This document shows positions 1,854-44,373 of a stretch of DNA of 64,000 nucleotides, in pieces. Both the position numbers and the translations under genes were made by a program. Position 1 is the stretch's first letter. The number at the start of each line of letters is the position of its first letter. The stretch lies in NCBI GenBank assembly GCA_937868765.1, contig CALMNL010000004.1, forward strand, positions 1,252,749-1,316,748, given 5' to 3'. Origin of the DNA: an uncultured Desulfatitalea sp. (GTDB taxonomy: Bacteria > Desulfobacterota > Desulfobacteria > Desulfobacterales > Desulfosarcinaceae). The notes under the pieces were generated by a model. It was given only the letters and a program-made list of their open reading frames with translations. It was not told the origin of the DNA and ran no database searches.

Positions 1854-3242
<1,389 letters not shown>

Positions 3243-3299: not shown

Positions 3300-3314
3300 T
3301 TGAATGGTATTAAA
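3300..3314. promoter_or_regulatory. Candidate TetR operator upstream of the MFS gene
   Basis: TTGAATGGTATTAAA is a 15-bp near-palindrome (5 of 7 pairs match around a central G). It closely matches TTTAATAGCATTAAA at 10949-10963, which sits in the promoter of the channel gene of the same putative regulon. It lies 74 bases before the MFS start codon. A tetR gene is second in the operon. Binding by that TetR is an inference. Confidence 0.5.
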
Positions 3315-3388
3315 TCATACCCGGTCTGTTCATACGCGCGCGCTCGGTTCGCCGAGTCCGCATAGACCCTGCGGCGGGAGGTCGTTTC

Positions 3389-4636
3389 ATGACGCAGACC
3401 CATCTGGTGACGGCGCAACCGATCGGCATCAAGGTGTACGGATATCGCTGGGTCATTCTCTTCTTCTTTTTCCTGATCAACGCCCTGATTCAGGTGCAGT
3501 GGATCACCTTCGCGCCCATCACCAGCGAAGCGATGGCCTTCTATGGGGTCTCCGCCCTGCAGATCGACCTGCTCTCCCTGATCTTCATGATCGTCTACCT
3601 CTTCGTTTCCATTCCGGCCTCCTATGTGATCGACACCTGGGGCATCCGGGTGGGCATCGGCATCGGGGCCGTGCTGTTGGGCCTTTTCAGTCTGGTAAAA
3701 GGCCTCTTCGGGGCACGCTACGAAATGGTGGTGCTGGCGCAAGTCGGCCTGGCCGTGGCCCAGCCGTTCATCCTGAACGCGGTCACCAAGCTGGGCGTGC
3801 GCTGGTTTCCACTGCACGAGCGGGCCACCCAGGCCGGCATTTCGGTGCTGGCCCAGTTCGTGGGCATCATCGCGGCCATGGCGGCAACGCCGTTGCTCCT
3901 GCAGCGCTGGGGCATGGAAAATATGCTGCGCGCCTACGGCCTTGTGGCCCTGGCCGGGGCCGCGCTCTTTTTGCTGTTCAACCGGGAACACCCGCCCACG
4001 CCGCCCTGTCCGCCAGGCCATGACGAACGCATCCCGGTCCTGGCCGGCCTGAAACACATCCTGCGGCAGAGAGACATGCGCTACCTGCTGATCGTTTTCT
4101 TCATCGGACTGGGCATCTTCAATGCCATCACCACCTGGATCGAGCAGATTCTCAGGCCGCGGGGGTTCTCCATCACCCAGGCCGGCTTTGCCGGGGCCAT
4201 GCTCATGATCGGCGGCATCATCGGCGCCTCCATCCTGCCTTTGCTTTCGGACCGGCTGCGCAAGCGAAAAGTCTTCATTCTCATTACCACGTTGTTTGCC
4301 CTGCCCGGGCTGGTGGGCCTGACCTTCGCGACCCATTATGGCTCGCTCCTGGCGGCCTGCTTTACCATGGGGTTTTTCCTGCTGGCCGGCGGCCCCATCT
4401 GCTATCAGTACTCCGCCGAGGTCTCATACCCGGCTCCCGAAGCCACCTCCCAGGGGTTGCTTCTGTTTGCCGGGCAGGTTTCGGGAATTCTCTTTGTCTT
4501 CTGCATGGATCTCTGGAGCGCGGCGGGCGAATCCAAGACGCCGGCCATGCTCGTGTTCATCGTCCTGACATTGCTCAACCTATATTTTATTCTGCGACTA
4601 AAGGAATCAAAACTGGTTCAAACGGATGAGATTTAA
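3389..4636 (+). CDS. MFS transporter
   Basis: Inner-membrane permease of 415 residues with about 12 hydrophobic helices, of the major facilitator superfamily. The first helix begins after a short cytoplasmic N-terminus (GYRWVILFFFFLINA). The layout recalls FLVCR-like and organic-solute MFS carriers. The ATG at 3389 follows GGGAGG. It is the first gene of a run that continues into tetR two bases later and then kinase, aminotransferase-like and RuBisCO-like genes, so it probably imports their substrate. The substrate cannot be read from sequence. Confidence 0.85.
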   Translation: MTQTHLVTAQPIGIKVYGYRWVILFFFFLINALIQVQWITFAPITSEAMAFYGVSALQIDLLSLIFMIVYLFVSIPASYVIDTWGIRVGIGIGAVLLGLFSLVKGLFGARYEMVVLAQVGLAVAQPFILNAVTKLGVRWFPLHERATQAGISVLAQFVGIIAAMAATPLLLQRWGMENMLRAYGLVALAGAALFLLFNREHPPTPPCPPGHDERIPVLAGLKHILRQRDMRYLLIVFFIGLGIFNAITTWIEQILRPRGFSITQAGFAGAMLMIGGIIGASILPLLSDRLRKRKVFILITTLFALPGLVGLTFATHYGSLLAACFTMGFFLLAGGPICYQYSAEVSYPAPEATSQGLLLFAGQVSGILFVFCMDLWSAAGESKTPAMLVFIVLTLLNLYFILRLKESKLVQTDEI

Positions 4637-4638
4637 AC

Positions 4639-5274
4639 ATGCCTAAAAAGACCCGAAGCACCGAAGAAGTGGATGCCGTCCGCGATCAGATTCTGGCGTG
4701 CGCCTTCGAGATCCTCGTCAAGAACGGCTACGAGGCTTTGTCCATGGCCAAGGTCGGCGCCCGCATGAAGATGACGGCCGCCAATCTCTACAATTACTAC
4801 GCCAACAAGGACGAGTTGCTCATCGCCATCCACAAAAAGGCCTATGGCATGCTGTATGACCAGCTGTGCGCCGCGGTCGCCAAAGCCAGGACGCCGCTGG
4901 CGCGCCTGCGCAAGATGATCGAAGTCTTCGTGGCCTTCGGCACACAAAACATCAATATCTACGACATCATGTTCAACCGTCGCATTCGCCAGCACAGCGA
5001 TTATATCGGTACGCCCCAGGAGGCGTTATCGGACGACGAGTTTCGCAGTTCTTTGCGGACGCGCACCTTTGCCGAAAAAGTGATCCAGGAGGTCTGCGAT
5101 GCCGAGGGGCAGGGCCATGCAATGGATGCGAAATTTCTGGCCATCCAGGCCACCAGCATGCTGCACGGCATCATCTCGCTTTACAACAGCGGGGTGCTCG
5201 CGCAGATCACCGCCGACCCCGAGGCAACCCTGAACCAAATCGTGGAGAATGTGATGCGCACCATCACCGGATGA
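4639..5274 (+). CDS. TetR/AcrR family transcriptional regulator
   Basis: Protein of 211 residues with an N-terminal TetR helix-turn-helix at about residues 10-60 (KVGARMKMTAANLYNYYANKDELL) and an all-helical C-terminal ligand/dimer domain. It begins two bases after the MFS stop and is probably cotranscribed with it. Two matching 15-bp palindromes, before the MFS gene and between the channel and aldolase genes, are its most likely operators. It would then be a local repressor released by a pathway intermediate. Confidence 0.9.
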   Translation: MPKKTRSTEEVDAVRDQILACAFEILVKNGYEALSMAKVGARMKMTAANLYNYYANKDELLIAIHKKAYGMLYDQLCAAVAKARTPLARLRKMIEVFVAFGTQNINIYDIMFNRRIRQHSDYIGTPQEALSDDEFRSSLRTRTFAEKVIQEVCDAEGQGHAMDAKFLAIQATSMLHGIISLYNSGVLAQITADPEATLNQIVENVMRTITG

Positions 5275-5312
5275 GCGTCTGAAAACACTTCCAGCCGAAT
5301 GCGGGTGAATGG

Positions 5313-6920
5313 ATGAAGAGCGAAGAAAAGTATATTCTGGCCATCGACCTGGGCACCTCCGGACCCAAGAGCACCCTGATCTCCGTTCGCGGAGAAGTGA
5401 TCGGCAGCCAGTTCCAGACCAACGACGTGATCCTGCTGCCCGGCGGCGGTGCCGAGCAGGACCCGGACCAGTGGTGGACGGCCATCATGACCACCGCCAG
5501 ACAGACGCTCGGCATGGGGCTGGTGGCCACCGAGCAGGTCGTTGCGGTCAGCGTGACCGCCCAGTGGTCGGGGACAGTGCCCGTGGACCGGGAAGGGCGG
5601 CACCTGATGAACGGCATCATCTGGATGGATTGCCGGGGGGCCGAGGCCATCCGCGAGAGGCTCACGGGTCTGGTCAACATAGAGGGCTACTCGCTGTTCA
5701 AGTTCCGCAACTGGCTCAAACTCACCGGTGGCGCGCCGGCGCGCTCGGGCAAGGACCCGCTGTGCCACATCCTGTGGCTGAAGAAGCACCGGCCGGATCT
5801 CTACCGCAAGACCTACAAATTCCTCGATCCCAAAGACTACGTCAACATGCGCCTGACCGGGCGCTTCGCGGCCACCTACGATTCCATCCTGCTTCATTGG
5901 GTCACCGACAATCGCGATCCGGCGCACATCGTCTACCATGACAAGCTGTTGAAGATGGCGGGTATCGAACGCGATAAGCTCCCCGACCTCATCGGCGCCC
6001 TGGATATTCTCGGACCGTTGAAGCCCGAAGTGGCTCGCGAGCTGGGCCTGGCGCCGGACACGCCGGTGATCGGCGGCACCCCCGACGTCCCTTCGGCCGG
6101 CGTGGGTTCGGGCGCCGTCCGGGATTACGAGGGCCACCTGTACATCGGCACCTCTTCGTGGATCTCGGCCCACGTGCCTTTCAAGAAGACCGACATCTTC
6201 CACAACTTCGGGTCGTTTCCCAGCCCCGTTCCCGGGCGCTACCTGATCCTCTCCGAACAGGAGTGCGCCGGCAAATGCCTTACCTGGCTCCGCGACAACG
6301 TGCTCTACCACCAGGACGAACTGATGCGGGAAGCCAATGCACCGGACATCTTCAAGGTCATGGACCAGATCGTCGGCCGGGTGCCGGCCGGGGCCAACGG
6401 CGTGATCTTCACGCCCTGGCTGTATGGCGAGCGCTCGCCCGTGGAAGATTGCTACATTCGGGCCTCCCTGTTCAATCTGTCGCTGCAGAACACCCGCGAA
6501 GACATCGTGCGGGCCGTTTTCGAAGGGGTGGCCTTTAACGCCCGGTGGCTGCTGCAGCCCGTGGAAAAGTTCATGGGGCGGCCTTTTTCCTACCTGAACT
6601 TCATCGGCGGCGGGGCCAACTCCGATGTCTGGTCGCAGATTCTGGCCGACGTCTTCGACCGCAAAATCCGCCAGGTGAAGGATCCGATCTTCTCCAATGC
6701 CCGGGGTGCGGCGTTCCTGGCCGCCATCGCCCTGGGCCACCTTAAGGCCGAAGAGATACCGGAATGCATCCAGATCAAGGCCGAATACACCCCCAACCCG
6801 AACCATCGCAAGATCTACGATGAGATCTTCAAGGAGTACCTGGCTTATTACAAATCCCAGAAAAAGGCCTGCGCGCGGTTGAACAAGGACTTGGACGTCA
6901 CCTGTGAGTTGCGGCAATGA
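5313..6920 (+). CDS. FGGY-family carbohydrate kinase
   Basis: Sugar or polyol kinase of 535 residues (xylulokinase/glycerol kinase superfamily) that should phosphorylate a small polyhydroxy substrate with ATP in the cytoplasm. The N-terminal phosphate loop is DLGTSGPKS. A GGTPDVPSAG segment carries the probable catalytic Asp, and the C-terminal half has the adenosine-site motif FIGGGANSDVW. The Shine-Dalgarno site is weak (GCGGGTG). It sits between tetR and the aminotransferase-like gene in one plus-strand run. Substrate-determining residues do not point to a named kinase. Confidence 0.87.
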   Translation: MKSEEKYILAIDLGTSGPKSTLISVRGEVIGSQFQTNDVILLPGGGAEQDPDQWWTAIMTTARQTLGMGLVATEQVVAVSVTAQWSGTVPVDREGRHLMNGIIWMDCRGAEAIRERLTGLVNIEGYSLFKFRNWLKLTGGAPARSGKDPLCHILWLKKHRPDLYRKTYKFLDPKDYVNMRLTGRFAATYDSILLHWVTDNRDPAHIVYHDKLLKMAGIERDKLPDLIGALDILGPLKPEVARELGLAPDTPVIGGTPDVPSAGVGSGAVRDYEGHLYIGTSSWISAHVPFKKTDIFHNFGSFPSPVPGRYLILSEQECAGKCLTWLRDNVLYHQDELMREANAPDIFKVMDQIVGRVPAGANGVIFTPWLYGERSPVEDCYIRASLFNLSLQNTREDIVRAVFEGVAFNARWLLQPVEKFMGRPFSYLNFIGGGANSDVWSQILADVFDRKIRQVKDPIFSNARGAAFLAAIALGHLKAEEIPECIQIKAEYTPNPNHRKIYDEIFKEYLAYYKSQKKACARLNKDLDVTCELRQ

Positions 6921-6970
6921 ACCGCCCGCGGCCGATCGATGGGTAGAGCGCAAAAGGAGGATGAACGCAT

Positions 6971-8380
6971 ATGGAGTACGAAGAAATCGTGGCGCGACGA
7001 AAGCAGATCCTTTCCCGCCCGGTCCGTCCCATTCCCCAGGAGAAGCTGGCGGCGGAACACAAGCGCTACGCCGAACGAACCCGGCGCTCGGTGGAAATCT
7101 TCGAAAAGGCCAAAGGCCTGATTCCAGGGGGCGTAGAGCACAACCTGAGCCAGAACAAGCCCTTCCCGCTGGCCATGGACCGGGCCAAAGGGTATAAGAT
7201 CTGGGACGTGGACGGCAACGAGTACGTCGATTACCTGCTCTGCGGCGCACCCATCATCCTCGGCCACGGTTTCGAAGCCTTGGATGAGAAAATCGTCCAG
7301 ATCATCCGGGAAAAGGGTCCGGCCACCGGTTTGACCTCGGAATACGAATTGCTGGCTGCCGAGCAGATCATCAAGCACATGCCCGGCGTGGAGATGGTGC
7401 GCTTTCTGCAATCCGGCACCGAGGCGGACATGGCCGCCATCCGCATCGCCCGGGCCTTCACCGGCAAGCAGAAGATCATCAAGATCGGCGGCAGCTACCA
7501 CGGCTGGTCCGACCAGATGGTCTACTCCATCCACATCCCCCAGACCGGCGCCCTGGAATCCAAGGGCATTCCCAATGAATGCTTCAGCCACATCGTGGAC
7601 GTGCCGCCCAATGACTTCGACGCCCTGGAAAAAGCCTTCAAAGAGCACCAGGACAAGGGCGGCATCGCCGGCATCCTGGTGGAACCCATCGGCGGCGAGT
7701 CCGGGGCGCACCCGGTGCATCCCGACTGGAACCGGACCATCCGCCAGCTGTGCGACCAGTACGGTGCCCTGATGATCTTCGACGAGGTCGTCACCGGTTT
7801 TCGCCTCGACATGGGCGGCGCCCAAAAGTACTACAACATCAAGCCCGACCTGACCGTGCTGGGCAAGATCATCACCCACGGATATCCCTCCTCGGGCGCA
7901 GTGTGCGGCCGCAAGGAGGTGATGAGCGCCTGCGCCGGCAGCCTGGGCCAGAAAGTCTTCGTGGGCGGCACCCTGGCGGCCAACCCCATCTCTACGGCGG
8001 CCTGCTACCACGCCCTCAAGCTCATGGAAGAACACGACGCCGTGGGAAAATCCACCGCTTACGCCGAGCGCCTCACCCGGGCGCTCAACGCACTTTTCGC
8101 CACCCGTCCCGACCTGGGTTTCTTCGTCTATAACTTCGGCCCGATCATGCACTACATGACCACCGCCTTCTTCTCCGTGGACCTCACCGCCGCCGACGCT
8201 TTGATCCAGATTCTCAACCGCAAGCAGGTGGCCGACGACTACCAGGTGATCACCATGGCTCACGGCCTGTGCACCCTGGCCGGCACGCGCATGTATACCT
8301 GCATGCAGCATGATGACGAGGCCCTGAAGAAGACCTTGGCGGTTTGGCAGTACTTGCTGGATCTGATACCGAAGCATTAG
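6971..8380 (+). CDS. Class III PLP aminotransferase / GSA-aminomutase-like enzyme
   Basis: Fold-type I PLP enzyme of 469 residues in the class III family (glutamate-1-semialdehyde aminomutase and omega-aminotransferases). The N-terminus contains FEKAKGLIPGGVEH, typical of GSA-aminomutase-like proteins. FLQSGTEADMAAIRIARAFT and IFDEVVTGFR (cofactor Asp) are present, and the PLP lysine is K299 in LGKII. AAAGGAGG precedes the ATG at 6971. It is unlikely to be hemL: it is embedded between a sugar kinase and a RuBisCO-like gene and is longer than usual HemL. It probably acts on a ketone or aldehyde of the same pathway. Confidence 0.85.
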   Translation: MEYEEIVARRKQILSRPVRPIPQEKLAAEHKRYAERTRRSVEIFEKAKGLIPGGVEHNLSQNKPFPLAMDRAKGYKIWDVDGNEYVDYLLCGAPIILGHGFEALDEKIVQIIREKGPATGLTSEYELLAAEQIIKHMPGVEMVRFLQSGTEADMAAIRIARAFTGKQKIIKIGGSYHGWSDQMVYSIHIPQTGALESKGIPNECFSHIVDVPPNDFDALEKAFKEHQDKGGIAGILVEPIGGESGAHPVHPDWNRTIRQLCDQYGALMIFDEVVTGFRLDMGGAQKYYNIKPDLTVLGKIITHGYPSSGAVCGRKEVMSACAGSLGQKVFVGGTLAANPISTAACYHALKLMEEHDAVGKSTAYAERLTRALNALFATRPDLGFFVYNFGPIMHYMTTAFFSVDLTAADALIQILNRKQVADDYQVITMAHGLCTLAGTRMYTCMQHDDEALKKTLAVWQYLLDLIPKH

Positions 8381-8430
8381 AAGGATTTTAGGTTGAGGAA
8401 TTCTACCCTGGCATAAAGGAGACAAAATCT

Positions 8431-9762
8431 ATGAGCGATAAATCGACCGCGAAGCCCATGGACGCTTTCGCCGACAAACCCATCGCCCTGCCCGAAGGCA
8501 TCGACATGGAAAGCCACATCGTCGCCACCTACTGGATCGAAGCCGACCGAACCATGGACATGGCCGTCATGGGGCAGGTGCTGGCCATCGAGCAGACCAC
8601 CGGCACCTGGGTCCCTGTACCCGGTGAAACGCCGGAAATCCGCGCCAGGCATGTGGCCAAGGTGATCGGCGTTTACGAGGCGCCGTACTTCGAGTACGGG
8701 ATACCCGAGGATGTGAAGCGGCGGCAATACATCCTACAGGTCGCCTTTCCGTCGGCCAATGTCGAAGACCAGCTGCCCATGATGCTGACCGCCACCATCG
8801 GTAACATTTCCCTGGTGCCCAATTTCAAGCTGCTGGACCTGCGCGTCCCCAAGGCCACCCTGGCGCAGTACAACGGCCCCAAATTCGGCCTGGACGGCTG
8901 GTGGCAGGCCCTGGGCCTTACGCGCGACCGGCCGCTGCTCAACAACATGATCAAGCCGTGCAGCGGCTATCCTCTGGAAGTAGGGGCCAAACTCTTCAAG
9001 GAGGCGGCCCTGGGCGGCTGCGACGTGATCAAGGACGACGAGCTGATCGCCAACATGCGCTACAACGATGCGGTCCAGCGGGTGAAGACCTACATGGCCA
9101 TCGAAAAGCAGGTCTTCGAGGAGACCGGCGAGCACACCCTCTACACGGTCAATGTCACCGACCGCCTGCCGCGCATGTTCGATCTGGCCAAGCGCTGCAT
9201 CGACGCCGGCGCCAATGCCATGATGGTCAACTATCTGGCCGTGGGCCCCGAAGCCATGCGCGCCCTGGCCGACGACCCGGCCATCAACGTGCCTATCCTG
9301 GCCCACATGGATCTGGCCGGCGCCTACTTCATGTCCCCCCACCAGGGGATCTCCTCGCCCATCATCTTCGGCAAGATTTCGCGTCTGTGCGGCGCCGACG
9401 CCATCGTGCTGCCCTTCTCCATGGGCGGCAAGGCGATCTACATGCACGACCGCTTCATGGCCACCACCCGCTGCCTGACCTACCCCATGGGCAACCTCAA
9501 ACCCACCATGCCCATGCCGTCGGGCGGCATCACGCCGGCCAATGTGGCCGACATCATGCTTTCCCTGGGCCGGGACATCATGATCGGATCGGGCGGCGGC
9601 ATCCATGCCCATCCCAAGGGGCCCCGGGCCGGTGCCCGGGCCCTGCGGCAGGCCATCGACGCCGCCCTCAAGGGGATTCCCGTGGAGCAGTACGGCAAAG
9701 ATCATGAAGAGCTGGGGATCGCACTGGGGGTATGGGGCAAGAAAACGGATTTCAAAATTTGA
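8431..9762 (+). CDS. RuBisCO-like protein (form IV-type large-subunit homologue)
   Basis: A 443-residue homologue of the RuBisCO large subunit. Retained: E54, T59/W60, N125, K175, the carbamylation/metal motif K201-D202-D203-E204, H292, S364-G365-G366 and the phosphate-binding glycines 388-390 (GGGIHAHPKG). Changed: the residue after K175-P176 is Cys where true RuBisCO has Lys177, Met follows H292 instead of Arg, the H327 position appears to be Ser, and the loop-6 GKLEG lysine motif is replaced by an FSMGGKA segment. Carboxylase activity is therefore unlikely; an enolase, isomerase or decarboxylase on a phosphorylated substrate is more plausible. It has a strong RBS (AAAGGAG) and is last in the operon before a terminator. 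Confidence 0.9.
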   Translation: MSDKSTAKPMDAFADKPIALPEGIDMESHIVATYWIEADRTMDMAVMGQVLAIEQTTGTWVPVPGETPEIRARHVAKVIGVYEAPYFEYGIPEDVKRRQYILQVAFPSANVEDQLPMMLTATIGNISLVPNFKLLDLRVPKATLAQYNGPKFGLDGWWQALGLTRDRPLLNNMIKPCSGYPLEVGAKLFKEAALGGCDVIKDDELIANMRYNDAVQRVKTYMAIEKQVFEETGEHTLYTVNVTDRLPRMFDLAKRCIDAGANAMMVNYLAVGPEAMRALADDPAINVPILAHMDLAGAYFMSPHQGISSPIIFGKISRLCGADAIVLPFSMGGKAIYMHDRFMATTRCLTYPMGNLKPTMPMPSGGITPANVADIMLSLGRDIMIGSGGGIHAHPKGPRAGARALRQAIDAALKGIPVEQYGKDHEELGIALGVWGKKTDFKI

Positions 9763-9802
9763 ACATAGCGGGCCTTCAGGAGAAAAAGGCATGAAAAAAG
9801 AG

Positions 9803-9844
9803 ACCGGGAGCCGGACAGGCAATTTCTCCAGTTCCCGGTTTTTT
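9803..9844. terminator. Bidirectional rho-independent terminator
   Basis: ACCGGGA (9803-9809) pairs with TCCCGGT (9833-9839), followed by a T-run to 9844 on the plus strand. An A-rich tract at about 9794-9800 gives the T-run for the minus strand. It separates the convergent RuBisCO-like gene and the channel gene and should end both transcripts. Confidence 0.75.
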
Positions 9845-9867
9845 AAAAAAGTCCGCTTTGCCGGAGT

Positions 9868-10791
9868 TCAAAATTTATAATTGCCGGCGATAAAGCCCCA
9901 GTCACCTTGAAAGCGATTCTCGGCATCGACCTCGTTGATCCATTTGGCGATGATCTGGAAATCCTTGAACGGCGACCACATCACCGCCGGGCCCACGCCG
10001 AGGCCTTCCCCTTTGAATTCAATATCTAAACCAGGGGCGGCATCCGCGGTGATCTGCTTATAATAGTAACCGACCACGCCGAGGCCGAAACTATCGGAAA
10101 AATACTGCGCCAGGGTGACATCGAGGTGAAATTCGTTCCCCGTGCGGTATTCCGTGTCATCGTTCTTTTGATTGGTCATATACCCCGCGAGGAAGGAAAT
10201 CTCATGGCCCCGCTTTTCATGCAACCAAGTTAAACCCAGCAAGGTTTCATAGGAGTAATAGTTGCGGCCGATGTTGGCCAGCTCTTCGGCGTCATACTCA
10301 CCGGTCTTCAACACGAAATTCTCGGAGAGGGTGAAATGAAAATAGCCCGAATTCCACATCAGGCCGAAGGGCACCACCTGGATATCCCCCAGTCCGGAGG
10401 CACTGTCCTCCAAGGTCATGCCGAGCACCTCGACATCCAGGTCCGCGGAAAACCCGTAGGGGACGTTCAGCACGCAAAAGTAATTACCACCCAGCAACTG
10501 CTTTTCGGAAATATAGGTCAGGACCAGCAGGTTGGCCCAGACGGTCTGGTCCATTTTGGCTTCGATGCCCGGCAGCACAGGGTAGTCATCGATATCGCCG
10601 TCGTAATAGATGACATTTTCGCGAATATAAAGGCCGGGGGGTGCATAATTCATGGAAAAATCGCCATAGGTACCGGGAGTATAGCTGCTACCAGCCCCTT
10701 CACTGGCCATCGCCGGCCCGATCAGCAACGGAAATAAAAACGATGCCAAGAACAAGACGACCGTAAGGAATCTGTTTGCGTGGCGCATCAT
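9868..10791 (-). CDS. Outer-membrane channel-like protein (MetA-pathway/SphA type)
   Basis: Exported protein of about 307 residues. I choose the ATG at 10791 because AAAGGAG lies just upstream and a signal peptide follows (RFLTVVLFLASFLFPL, cleavage near AMASEG). The rest alternates aromatic and polar residues as in a beta-barrel and ends in aromatic YKF. The pattern fits the family annotated as transporter/SphA or phenol-MetA-degradation proteins, thought to pass small hydrophobic or polar substrates. Its promoter carries the putative TetR operator, so it is likely the outer-membrane partner of the MFS transporter. Confidence 0.75.
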   Translation of the reverse strand: MMRHANRFLTVVLFLASFLFPLLIGPAMASEGAGSSYTPGTYGDFSMNYAPPGLYIRENVIYYDGDIDDYPVLPGIEAKMDQTVWANLLVLTYISEKQLLGGNYFCVLNVPYGFSADLDVEVLGMTLEDSASGLGDIQVVPFGLMWNSGYFHFTLSENFVLKTGEYDAEELANIGRNYYSYETLLGLTWLHEKRGHEISFLAGYMTNQKNDDTEYRTGNEFHLDVTLAQYFSDSFGLGVVGYYYKQITADAAPGLDIEFKGEGLGVGPAVMWSPFKDFQIIAKWINEVDAENRFQGDWGFIAGNYKF

Positions 10792-10946
10792 GAAATTTCT
10801 CCTTTGCTTCAGTTTGGGATCCATGTGAGAAAGGGATCGGCAACGCACCTCGCTCCGGCATCCGGAGATACTTTGCCCCGACGAGAGACAGCCTCGCAAC
10901 TCTCGGCGATATCGGTGGACCAGGGAATATATCTTGAGTTTTTTTA

Positions 10947-10976
10947 ATTTTAATAGCATTAAATTTATCAAGTCAA
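10947..10976 (-). promoter_or_regulatory. Sigma-70-type promoter of the channel gene
   Basis: On the minus strand, TTGACT (10976-10971), an 18-bp spacer and TAAAAT (10952-10947) make a good sigma-70-like promoter about 156 bases before the channel ATG. The candidate operator 10949-10963 covers the -10 box and part of the spacer, a classic repressor position. Confidence 0.6.
10949..10963. promoter_or_regulatory. Candidate TetR operator between channel and aldolase genes
   Basis: TTTAATAGCATTAAA is palindromic in 6 of 7 pairs around a central G. Only three positions differ from the element at 3300-3314. It overlaps the -10 region of the channel promoter and lies about 57 bases before the divergent aldolase start, so one repressor could control both genes. 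Confidence 0.55.
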
Positions 10977-11019
10977 CATCTATTTACTACCAATTCTATT
11001 CAGGGGAGATTTTCTTGCC

Positions 11020-11721
11020 ATGAGCGACTACGAAACGTGTAAAAAGAGCGTGCTCGACGCCAGTCTCTGGCTTTCGGAACACGGCTATTTTGGTTCCCTG
11101 AGGGGCTCGGGGGGCAATGTATCCGTGCGCGGCGACGAAGCTTCCATGATTATTACGCCTTCCTCGTTGAGCTACCAGACGATGACCGTCGAGGATCTAT
11201 TCGTGCTGGGCCTGGACCTTTCCGTCATCCAGGGCAAGAGCGGACTCAAGCCCTCCATGGAGGCGGGCATGCACGCCGCCATCTACCGCCGGCGACCCGA
11301 CGTGCAGGCCATCGTCCACACCCATCAGAACTACGGCAGCGTCTTCGCCCTGCTCAACAGGCCGATTCCGGCCCTTTTCGACGAGGTGGCCTTCTCCCTG
11401 GGCACGGCGGTGGAGATCATCCCCTACGCCGTTTCCGGGAGCCCGGAACTGGCCCGCAACGTGGAAACCATGCTGGCCAACAATGCCAATGCCTATATCA
11501 TCCAGAACCATGGCATCCTGGCCCTGGGCAAAACCCTCGACAAGGCTGTCCTGCATGCCGAGCTGCTGGAGAAGGTGGCCCATATCTACTGCCTGGCGCT
11601 CTCCACCGGCCAGCCGGTTACCACACTGCCCCAGGATATCGTTCAACTGGTTGCAGCGATGCGCGCACACGAGGTCAAATCGGCCGGCGCCAAACAGCAG
11701 CCGCCGATTCAGCACCTGTAA
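11020..11721 (+). CDS. Class II aldolase/adducin-family protein
   Basis: Cytoplasmic enzyme of 233 residues in the zinc-dependent class II aldolase family (FucA, AraD, RhaD, MtnB). The metal-site histidines appear as HTHQNYG in the middle and QNHGILALG near the C-terminus. A phosphate-binding segment, GSGGNVSVR, is near the N-terminus. It could cleave or dehydrate a phosphorylated ketose made by the upstream kinase. AGGGGAG precedes the ATG. It is divergent from the channel gene and shares the candidate operator region. Confidence 0.87.
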   Translation: MSDYETCKKSVLDASLWLSEHGYFGSLRGSGGNVSVRGDEASMIITPSSLSYQTMTVEDLFVLGLDLSVIQGKSGLKPSMEAGMHAAIYRRRPDVQAIVHTHQNYGSVFALLNRPIPALFDEVAFSLGTAVEIIPYAVSGSPELARNVETMLANNANAYIIQNHGILALGKTLDKAVLHAELLEKVAHIYCLALSTGQPVTTLPQDIVQLVAAMRAHEVKSAGAKQQPPIQHL

Positions 11722-44090: not shown

Positions 44091-44373
44091 GGGTGCCTCC
44101 CTTGATTGAATATTTTCATAAAGTTAAAGACGATCGTCCTGCCTTAATAAATTCGTCCCAACGCACATCGATCCATGCCGTCCGTTGGCGTTTGAAGGGA
44201 GCTCGTGCAGCCGACGGTTTGCCCTCCGCCCGGCGGCGTTCGCAGCCGCTTTGATGCCTTTCCGGCGAAATCGGCATGCTACCAAATATGATCGGAGAAT
44301 GTAAAGCGCTGTTTGGCTCAAATTGGGGCAAAGGGGGATTTTGCCTCAGATCGGAATCATGTTCGAAAATCGA

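What the first reader, a model, noticed from the sequence alone, without database searches (positions are those of the whole stretch)
3300..11721. Putative catabolic regulon built around a RuBisCO-like protein
The sequence shows MFS transporter, TetR, FGGY kinase, class III aminotransferase-like enzyme and RuBisCO-like protein in one run, then an outer-membrane channel and a class II aldolase in a divergent pair. Family knowledge: FGGY kinases phosphorylate sugars or polyols, class II aldolases cleave phosphorylated ketoses, and RuBisCO-like proteins act on phosphorylated diketo/enol substrates (MtnW, OiaX). The family set matches neither the methionine-salvage nor the D-apionate pathway as I know them. 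I infer a complete but undescribed import-and-cleavage route for a polyhydroxy or amino-sugar-like compound.
Basis: partly seen in the sequence, partly recalled or inferred. Interest (0 to 1): 0.85.

Follow-up and report, generated by a model that had tools for sequence, protein, structure and literature searches.

The report
TetR-controlled RuBisCO-like sugar-phosphate pathway
A group of mostly uncultured bacteria carry a gene set (import channel, transporter, kinase, aminotransferase, a RuBisCO-like enzyme and an aldolase) that seems to be switched on together and looks like an undescribed way to take up and split a small sugar-like compound.

Summary
Two independent lines make them one unit. 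[quoted passage not shown] Regulation: a 15-bp palindrome occurs exactly twice in the window, before the transporter operon and between outer-membrane channel and aldolase (0.03 expected). Its stricter form, at most one mismatch, has 22 sites in 14 loci with a similar TetR (0.4 expected; 12 of 14 loci have one), each just upstream of the transporter, TetR, kinase or aldolase. This predicts one TetR regulon. The RLP is below the cut-off of all six NCBIfam models it matches. It keeps RuBisCO's metal and enolisation residues but has lost R295 and H327 in 80 of 80 sequences, implying a monophosphate substrate. The aminotransferase is not HemL; the genome has its own. Likeliest scheme: import, phosphorylation, RLP enolisation/isomerisation, aldol cleavage. 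Substrate, order of steps and the aminotransferase's role are unproven, and the aldolase could be an epimerase. My paper searches showed no description. New variant of a known kind.

The parts
3300..3314 (.). predicted TetR operator TTGAATGGTATTAAA, 74 bp before the MFS start codon
3389..4636 (+). MFS transporter; no NCBIfam cut-off reached
4639..5274 (+). TetR-family regulator, proposed repressor of the set
   Evidence: a TetR of at least 50% identity in the 14 distinct loci tested for the palindrome
5313..6920 (+). FGGY carbohydrate kinase, XylB-like but below cut-off; catalytic Asp kept, xylulokinase His78 replaced by Ser
6971..8380 (+). class III (GSAM-like) PLP aminotransferase/aminomutase, not HemL
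8431..9762 (+). RuBisCO-like protein of an unassigned subfamily
9868..10791 (-). outer-membrane channel, PF13557 type (start chosen by eye)
10949..10963 (.). predicted TetR operator TTTAATAGCATTAAA between channel (157 bp) and aldolase (56 bp)
11020..11721 (+). class II aldolase/epimerase family protein, FucA-like active site

Best explanation
A TetR-repressed import and degradation regulon. A small polar compound enters through the outer-membrane channel and the MFS transporter. The FGGY kinase phosphorylates a terminal hydroxyl of it or of its keto form. The RuBisCO-like protein, with a carbamylated-lysine Mg site and the base equivalent to RuBisCO K175, enolises the monophosphorylated ketone and isomerises it (or decarboxylates it). 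The class II aldolase then cleaves the product, most likely to dihydroxyacetone phosphate and a small aldehyde. The class III aminotransferase handles an amino group at some point, before the kinase or on the aldehyde product. Shown by computation: gene content, co-occurrence, shared palindrome, residue pattern. Inferred: each catalytic step, their order, direction and substrate.
For: Kinase within 3 kb of the RLP in 75/80 named loci, 73 on the same strand; in L044 and L052 it is a kinase of another FGGY branch. Palindrome twice in the window against 0.03 expected; 22 sites with at most 1 mismatch in 14 loci (window included) against 0.4 expected, all 12-271 bp before MFS, TetR, FGGY or aldolase starts (for L012's MFS I take the start, for the window's aldolase that, because the ORF caller chose another start or ORF there). 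Aldolase upstream regions carry it in 7 of 9 loci tested. In the window, L012, L014, L019 and L033 the site lies between the aldolase and a divergent channel or porin. RLP residues E60, T65, W66, N123, K175, K201, D203, E204, H294, K334, G381, G403, G404 kept in 80/80; R295 to M and H327 to V in 80/80. Aldolase aligned to FucA with its Glu, the HxH pair and the later His kept (residue roles recalled).
Against: Aldolase within 6 kb in only 13/80 and aminotransferase within 3 kb in 38/80. In 20 of the 44 Actinomycetota and Chloroflexota loci a saccharopine-dehydrogenase-like gene is near instead (22/80 in all). None of the NCBIfam models listed for kinase, aminotransferase, RLP, MFS or aldolase reaches its cut-off, so each substrate is open; the aldolase's best listed model is an L-ribulose-5-phosphate 4-epimerase (134/251 bits), so it may be an epimerase. 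L013 and L025 lack the palindrome; L020, L022 and L038, which have the aldolase but no TetR of 50%, show no exact copy of the looser pattern. In the own genome that looser pattern has four further places, not examined beyond reading short ORF starts, and its reversed control two. TetR binding is untested. No wet data.
Confidence: 0.5

Rival explanations
1. Anaerobic variant of methionine or 5-deoxyribose salvage: the RLP and class II aldolase process MTRu-1-P or 5-deoxyribulose-1-P made by MtnA, with the aminotransferase as a MtnE analogue.
For: MtnA above cut-off in 31 of 33 tested genomes, own included; best RLP model scores are MtnW; class II aldolases serve the DHAP shunt (PMC6302742, passages seen); functional classes parallel MtnK-MtnB-MtnW-MtnE (recalled).
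Against: Channel and importer share the palindrome, odd for an internal by-product; no MtnA/MtnK/MtnX among the ten window genes scanned with Pfam, and the own mtnA lies on another contig; RLP 324/409 and 282/514 bits, below both MtnW cut-offs; the residue aligned with an MtnW lysine (catalytic, recalled) is Asn; FGGY kinase unexplained; MtnA is widespread anyway (rings in 9 of 14 control genomes).
Confidence: 0.12
2. Acid-sugar pathway of the OiaX/tetronate kind in which an FGGY kinase replaces the usual four-carbon acid sugar kinase (DUF1537, recalled) and the RLP is a decarboxylase.
For: RLPs next to an annotated 'four-carbon acid sugar kinase' in L095 and L098; the L064 aldolase scores best, though below cut-off, with 3-oxo-tetronate-4-phosphate decarboxylase (137.9/250); MFS resembles D-galactonate transporters weakly (66.5/395); K334 kept.
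Against: RLP 176 of 700 bits for OiaX; the OiaX, L095 and L098 proteins keep R295 while this family has Met in 80/80, which argues against an anionic distal end; the window aldolase scores only 91.4/250 with that decarboxylase model.
Confidence: 0.15
3. Kinase and RLP process a phosphorylated diketone related to AI-2 (LsrK-like), the RLP doing the LsrG-type tautomerisation.
For: AI-2 kinase is the second-best of six E. coli FGGY relatives of the window kinase (135 v 163 bits for XylB); MtnW acts on a 2,3-diketo phosphate (recalled).
Against: XylB is best for all 66 kinases compared; no lsr-type partner appeared among the neighbour cluster representatives annotated, but lsr genes were not searched for.
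Confidence: 0.05
4. Independent genes that happen to lie together.
For: Aldolase and aminotransferase are not at every locus.
Against: Cross-phylum kinase-RLP linkage and the shared palindrome.
Confidence: 0.03

Closest known systems
MtnW, 2,3-diketo-5-methylthiopentyl-1-phosphate enolase (methionine salvage)
   Same: closest RLP by sequence (NCBIfam; PDB 2zvi/3fk4); Mg-site residues; R295 and H327 also absent
   Different: below cut-off; Asn instead of Lys at the RuBisCO-123 position; K334 kept here, Ser in the MtnW compared; different kinase and aldolase families beside it
OiaX and RLPs beside a four-carbon acid sugar kinase
   Same: RLP encoded beside a sugar kinase (L095, L098; the annotated oiaX of L093 has no such kinase in the 9.3 kb shown)
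   Different: FGGY kinase here; R295 kept there, Met here; 176/700 bits with OiaX
FucK-FucA / RhaB-RhaD type kinase-aldolase routes
   Same: FGGY kinase plus class II aldolase giving DHAP (chemistry recalled; E. coli fuc and rha loci seen)
   Different: kinase is XylB-like; RLP and aminotransferase added; no sugar isomerase among the window genes scanned
Glutamate-1-semialdehyde aminomutase (HemL)
   Same: fold family and PLP-site stretch aligned
   Different: 312/527 bits while the genome's HemL scores 640/527; the Arg of the GSAM SPVR stretch is aligned with Ser (role recalled)

Membership tests
MtnW | NCBIfam equivalog cut-off | tested here: not met
   324/409 and 282/513.6 bits
MtnW | lysine at the RuBisCO-123 position | tested here: not met
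   Asn in 80/80, Lys in the one MtnW compared (B. velezensis)
MtnW | neighbours MtnX/MtnB/MtnD/MtnK | tested here: not met
   none among the ten window genes scanned or over an NCBIfam cut-off; mtnK, mtnX, dehydratase and cupin seen around the reference
OiaX | NCBIfam equivalog cut-off | tested here: not met
   175.9/700
RuBisCO (carboxylase forms I-III) | full active-site set incl. K177, R295, H298, H327 | tested here: not met
   C/N, M, A/G/S and V in 80 sequences; form III 230/497 bits
RuBisCO superfamily | both Pfam domains and K175/K201/D203/E204 | tested here: met
Xylulokinase | NCBIfam cut-off and His78 | tested here: not met
   279.7/380 bits; Ser at that position, no His in any of 18 family kinases shown (role recalled)
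HemL | equivalog cut-off | tested here: not met
   312/527
L-fuculose-phosphate aldolase | equivalog cut-off | tested here: not met
   115.9/400 TIGR01086, 128/264 NF005302
L-ribulose-5-phosphate 4-epimerase (PRK06557 subfamily) | NCBIfam cut-off | tested here: not met
   best listed model for the aldolase, 134/251 bits
TetR regulon | palindromic site before each transcription unit | tested here: met
   window and 11 of 13 other loci carry at least one site
TetR regulon | binding of the site by this TetR | not testable with these tools
   needs purified protein

The most novel reading that the evidence does not exclude
This RLP subfamily carries out a reaction not yet known for the RuBisCO superfamily: enolisation (isomerisation, epimerisation or (de)carboxylation, since K175, K201, H294 and K334 are all kept) of a C1-monophosphorylated ketose made by an FGGY kinase, in an import-and-cleavage pathway shared by Desulfobacterota, Actinomycetota and Chloroflexota.
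Probability: 0.45. Interest if true: 0.75.

Novelty: new variant of a known kind. Interest (0 to 1): 0.62.

Why it matters
Few RLPs have known reactions (recalled). Here a whole subfamily comes with a nearly constant kinase partner, a predicted operator and a residue pattern that narrows the substrate to a monophosphate, so its reaction can be sought directly. It would add a physiological role for the RuBisCO fold in bacteria known here only from metagenome-assembled genomes (all 80 record titles), lineages that I take to be mostly anaerobic (recalled).

Tried and rejected
Strict exclusion of aminotransferase and saccharopine-dehydrogenase-like gene (c4): at the RLP locus they never occur together (38 and 22 of 80, both 0; one of the 38, L036, rests on a 41% opposite-strand hit and is doubtful), and the state changes at least 5 times on the RLP tree. 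At genome level it fails: of 26 genomes without c4 at the RLP locus (20 with and 6 without the aminotransferase there), 12 carry a c4 relative elsewhere, 10 of them at 47% or more; I fetched nine of those ten and each lies beside another FGGY kinase. Of the 22 c4-locus genomes I searched 21 and none has an aminotransferase above 43% identity, while 24 of the 26 others have one at 45% or more, four of them away from the RLP locus (L050, L054, L059 at 62-64%, L085 at 45%). I therefore do not claim that c4 replaces the aminotransferase.

RuBisCO carboxylase reading: rejected on residues. Deep placement of the RLP among reference RLPs: not used, because reference branches are long and the tool warns of false joins; the clade of 80 itself has SH-aLRT 93. 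Neighbour clusters were made from mechanical ORFs; in some loci antisense ORFs displaced real genes, so presence was scored by tblastn. FGGY exceptions: L053, L071 and L086 end within 0.9 kb upstream of the RLP; L037 (4.1 kb upstream held) and L076 (2.8 kb) have no FGGY hit within 3 kb and are true gaps in the pattern. In L036 and L046 the FGGY hit is on the other strand at 36-37% and may be unrelated; L046 is among the 56 of 56. L030 was dropped from the residue count and the tree because my start-codon rule cut its protein. The looser palindrome was also scanned in 29 loci (L007 and L011 being one genome): 6 had an exact copy upstream of a set gene, and L011/L007 also a stray one elsewhere; a two-mismatch scan of the window gave one more site at 44114.
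Full report
Observation. The seven genes are present at the stated places. MFS, TetR, FGGY kinase, class III aminotransferase and RLP follow each other on the + strand with gaps of 2-50 bp; the PF13557-type channel (-) and the class II aldolase (+) are divergent. The window lies in a 5.36 Mb genome, reported 100% complete, in which the RuBisCO large-chain family matches one place.

Distribution. In the window's class, 5 of 291 drawn genomes have an RLP match at 1e-30: the own genome, one of the same genus (95% identity), two at 67-68% and one distant at 32%. A scan of the collection of one genome for each of 84,980 species, with a four-row alignment, found 305 stretches encoding a relative and kept the best 80 (the named loci L011-L090, 56-95% identical). 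Their titles name Syntrophaceae/Smithella and other Deltaproteobacteria, Desulfobacterales, Actinomycetota (including Geothermincola and Solincola), Chloroflexota/Dehalococcoidia and two Spirochaetes (the automatic ranks put 'Deltaproteobacteria bacterium' titles under Myxococcota and are not relied on for those).

Neighbourhood. FGGY lies within 3 kb of the RLP in 75 of 80 loci, 73 on the same strand; in the 56 loci with at least 3 kb of DNA on both sides it is 56 of 56, one of these (L046) on the other strand. The aminotransferase is within 3 kb in 38, a saccharopine-dehydrogenase-like gene (c4; representative with PF03435/PF16653) within 3.5 kb in 22, never both; an aldolase within 6 kb in 13. 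In L038 and in L063/L064 (different phyla) c4, aldolase, a TetR, FGGY and RLP stand together in different orders. Genome-wide, the aminotransferase (45% identity or more) is found in 24 of 26 tested genomes without c4 at the locus, including four where it is elsewhere, and in none of 21 searched c4-locus genomes above 43%. In 291 class genomes, 15 have a match at 1e-90: the two with the 95-100% RLP at 93-100%, and 13 others at 42-48%; the two genomes with a 67-68% RLP have none.

Regulon. Reading the two promoter regions showed the palindrome TTNAATNNNATTNAA at 3300-3314 and 10949-10963, the only two matches in 64 kb (0.03 expected). The stricter TTTAATNNNATTAAA with at most one mismatch was then looked for in the 14 distinct loci whose TetR is at least 50% identical, window included. 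12 of 14 carry it, 22 sites in 307 kb against 0.4 expected from a first-order Markov model; three pairs of sites lie 14 bp apart and are not independent, and L011/L012 are close relatives of the window. All 22 lie 12-271 bp upstream of MFS, TetR, FGGY or the aldolase. On the operon side (MFS, TetR or FGGY) 10 of 14 loci have one, before the aldolase 7 of 9. In five loci the site lies between the aldolase and a divergent channel or porin (the porin of L014, L019 and L033 belongs to a cluster whose L020 member matches an outer-membrane porin model below cut-off, 54/250). L013 (cut at the operon start) and L025 lack it; L020, L022 and L038, outside the TetR set, have an aldolase but no exact looser copy. 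In the whole own genome the looser pattern has six places, its reversed control two; the four outside the window were looked at only by short ORF starts, without a family search.

The RLP. It reaches none of the cut-offs of the six NCBIfam models it matches, among them MtnW 324/409 and 282/514, form III 230/497, OiaX 176/700. Aligned with a C. necator form I enzyme, 80 family members (79 named loci plus window) keep E60, T65, W66, N123, K175, K201, D203, E204, H294, K334, G381, G403 and G404 without exception and S379 in 79; R295 is Met and H327 is Val in all 80; K177 is Cys (77) or Asn (3); H298 and L335 are changed too. From established RuBisCO chemistry (recalled), R295 and H327 bind the phosphate on C5 while T65, W66, K334, G381, G403 and G404 bind that on C1. 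I infer a substrate with one phosphate, beside the enolisable ketone, and a distal end without an anion. The OiaX and the two acid-sugar-kinase-linked RLPs compared keep R295.

Partners. The kinase is XylB-like but below cut-off (280/380). XylB is the best of six E. coli FGGY kinases for all 66 family kinases compared. The catalytic Asp is kept and xylulokinase's His78 is not, in the 18 family kinases shown. The kinases beside most Desulfobacterota RLPs and those of Actinomycetota/Chloroflexota form separate branches, and L044, L052 (and the opposite-strand one of L046) another, so different FGGY lineages accompany the same RLP. The aminotransferase is GSAM-like (312/527) but the genome's own HemL scores 640/527. 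The aldolase's best listed models, all below cut-off, are an L-ribulose-5-phosphate 4-epimerase (134/251), FucA (128/264) and ribulose-1-phosphate aldolase (128/300); MtnB scores 83/137; its closest solved relative is FucA.

Other neighbours. A protein just downstream of the RLP in 20 loci (c3) has no Pfam or NCBIfam match. Its AF2 model (pLDDT 75) finds only zinc-dependent phospholipase C and S1-type nuclease structures in the first 19 Foldseek rows, but weakly: best E 0.015, none at 0.001, TM-scores by query length at most 0.38. It keeps the HxxxD...H and HxxxE pattern of that family (pattern recalled). No such ORF stands after the window's RLP.

Mechanism. Import (channel, MFS), kinase, RLP enolisation/isomerisation, aldol cleavage to DHAP plus an aldehyde, with the aminotransferase acting on an amino group at an unknown step. 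The regulon and the monophosphate inference rest on computation; the chemistry is inference by family.

Literature. PMC7325909 (passages seen) reports an RLP of unknown function in an actinobacterium, near an epimerase-domain gene and a DeoR-type domain; whether it belongs to this subfamily is not known. PMC6302742 (passages seen) covers salvage pathways. The passages seen of PMC3245297 and PMC4846661 do not mention this set. Searches combining RLP with FGGY kinase/aldolase (30 of 30 listed), aminotransferase/genome neighborhood (20 of 46), form IV with Dehalococcoidia/Syntrophaceae (13 of 13), RuBisCO-like or 3-oxo-isoapionate (40 of 173) and lineage words (15 of 30) listed no paper on this set by title or abstract start; RuBisCO-like with Smithella and form IV RubisCO with xylulokinase gave no paper. 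Carter et al. 2018 and Zhang et al. 2016 on acid-sugar pathways are not held, and most subscription papers are missing, so absence from print is not established.

Verdict. Real, conserved, predicted to be co-regulated, and not explained by any pathway whose markers I could test. New variant of a known kind.

Noticed in passing
L029:11404-12480 and 19 other loci, just downstream of the RLP: Protein of about 357 aa without Pfam/NCBIfam match; model and residue pattern weakly resemble zinc-dependent phospholipase C/S1 nuclease.
   Followed up: partly
L104-L112: A c4/FGGY pair without RLP nearby in genomes that have the RLP set elsewhere: the FGGY is 45-48% identical to the window kinase in L108-L112 and 33-34% in L104-L107; a TetR 34-36% identical to the window's is seen in L108-L112.
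   Followed up: partly
L032:5847-6881 and seven other loci: HpnA-like epimerase/SDR, directly before the kinase in L032, within a few kb of the RLP elsewhere.
   Followed up: no
L042:4384-4890 and five other Actinomycetota loci: HNH-domain protein of 169 aa close after the RLP, weakly similar to IscB.
   Followed up: no
G267 (L006, L010): A genome of the same order carries a distant RLP (31-32%) that groups with the Thiodictyon RLP encoded near puf genes.
   Followed up: no
window, ORFs 6-1847 and 1854-3242: Putative histidine kinase and sigma-54 response regulator upstream of the set, not seen beside it in L011/L012.
   Followed up: partly
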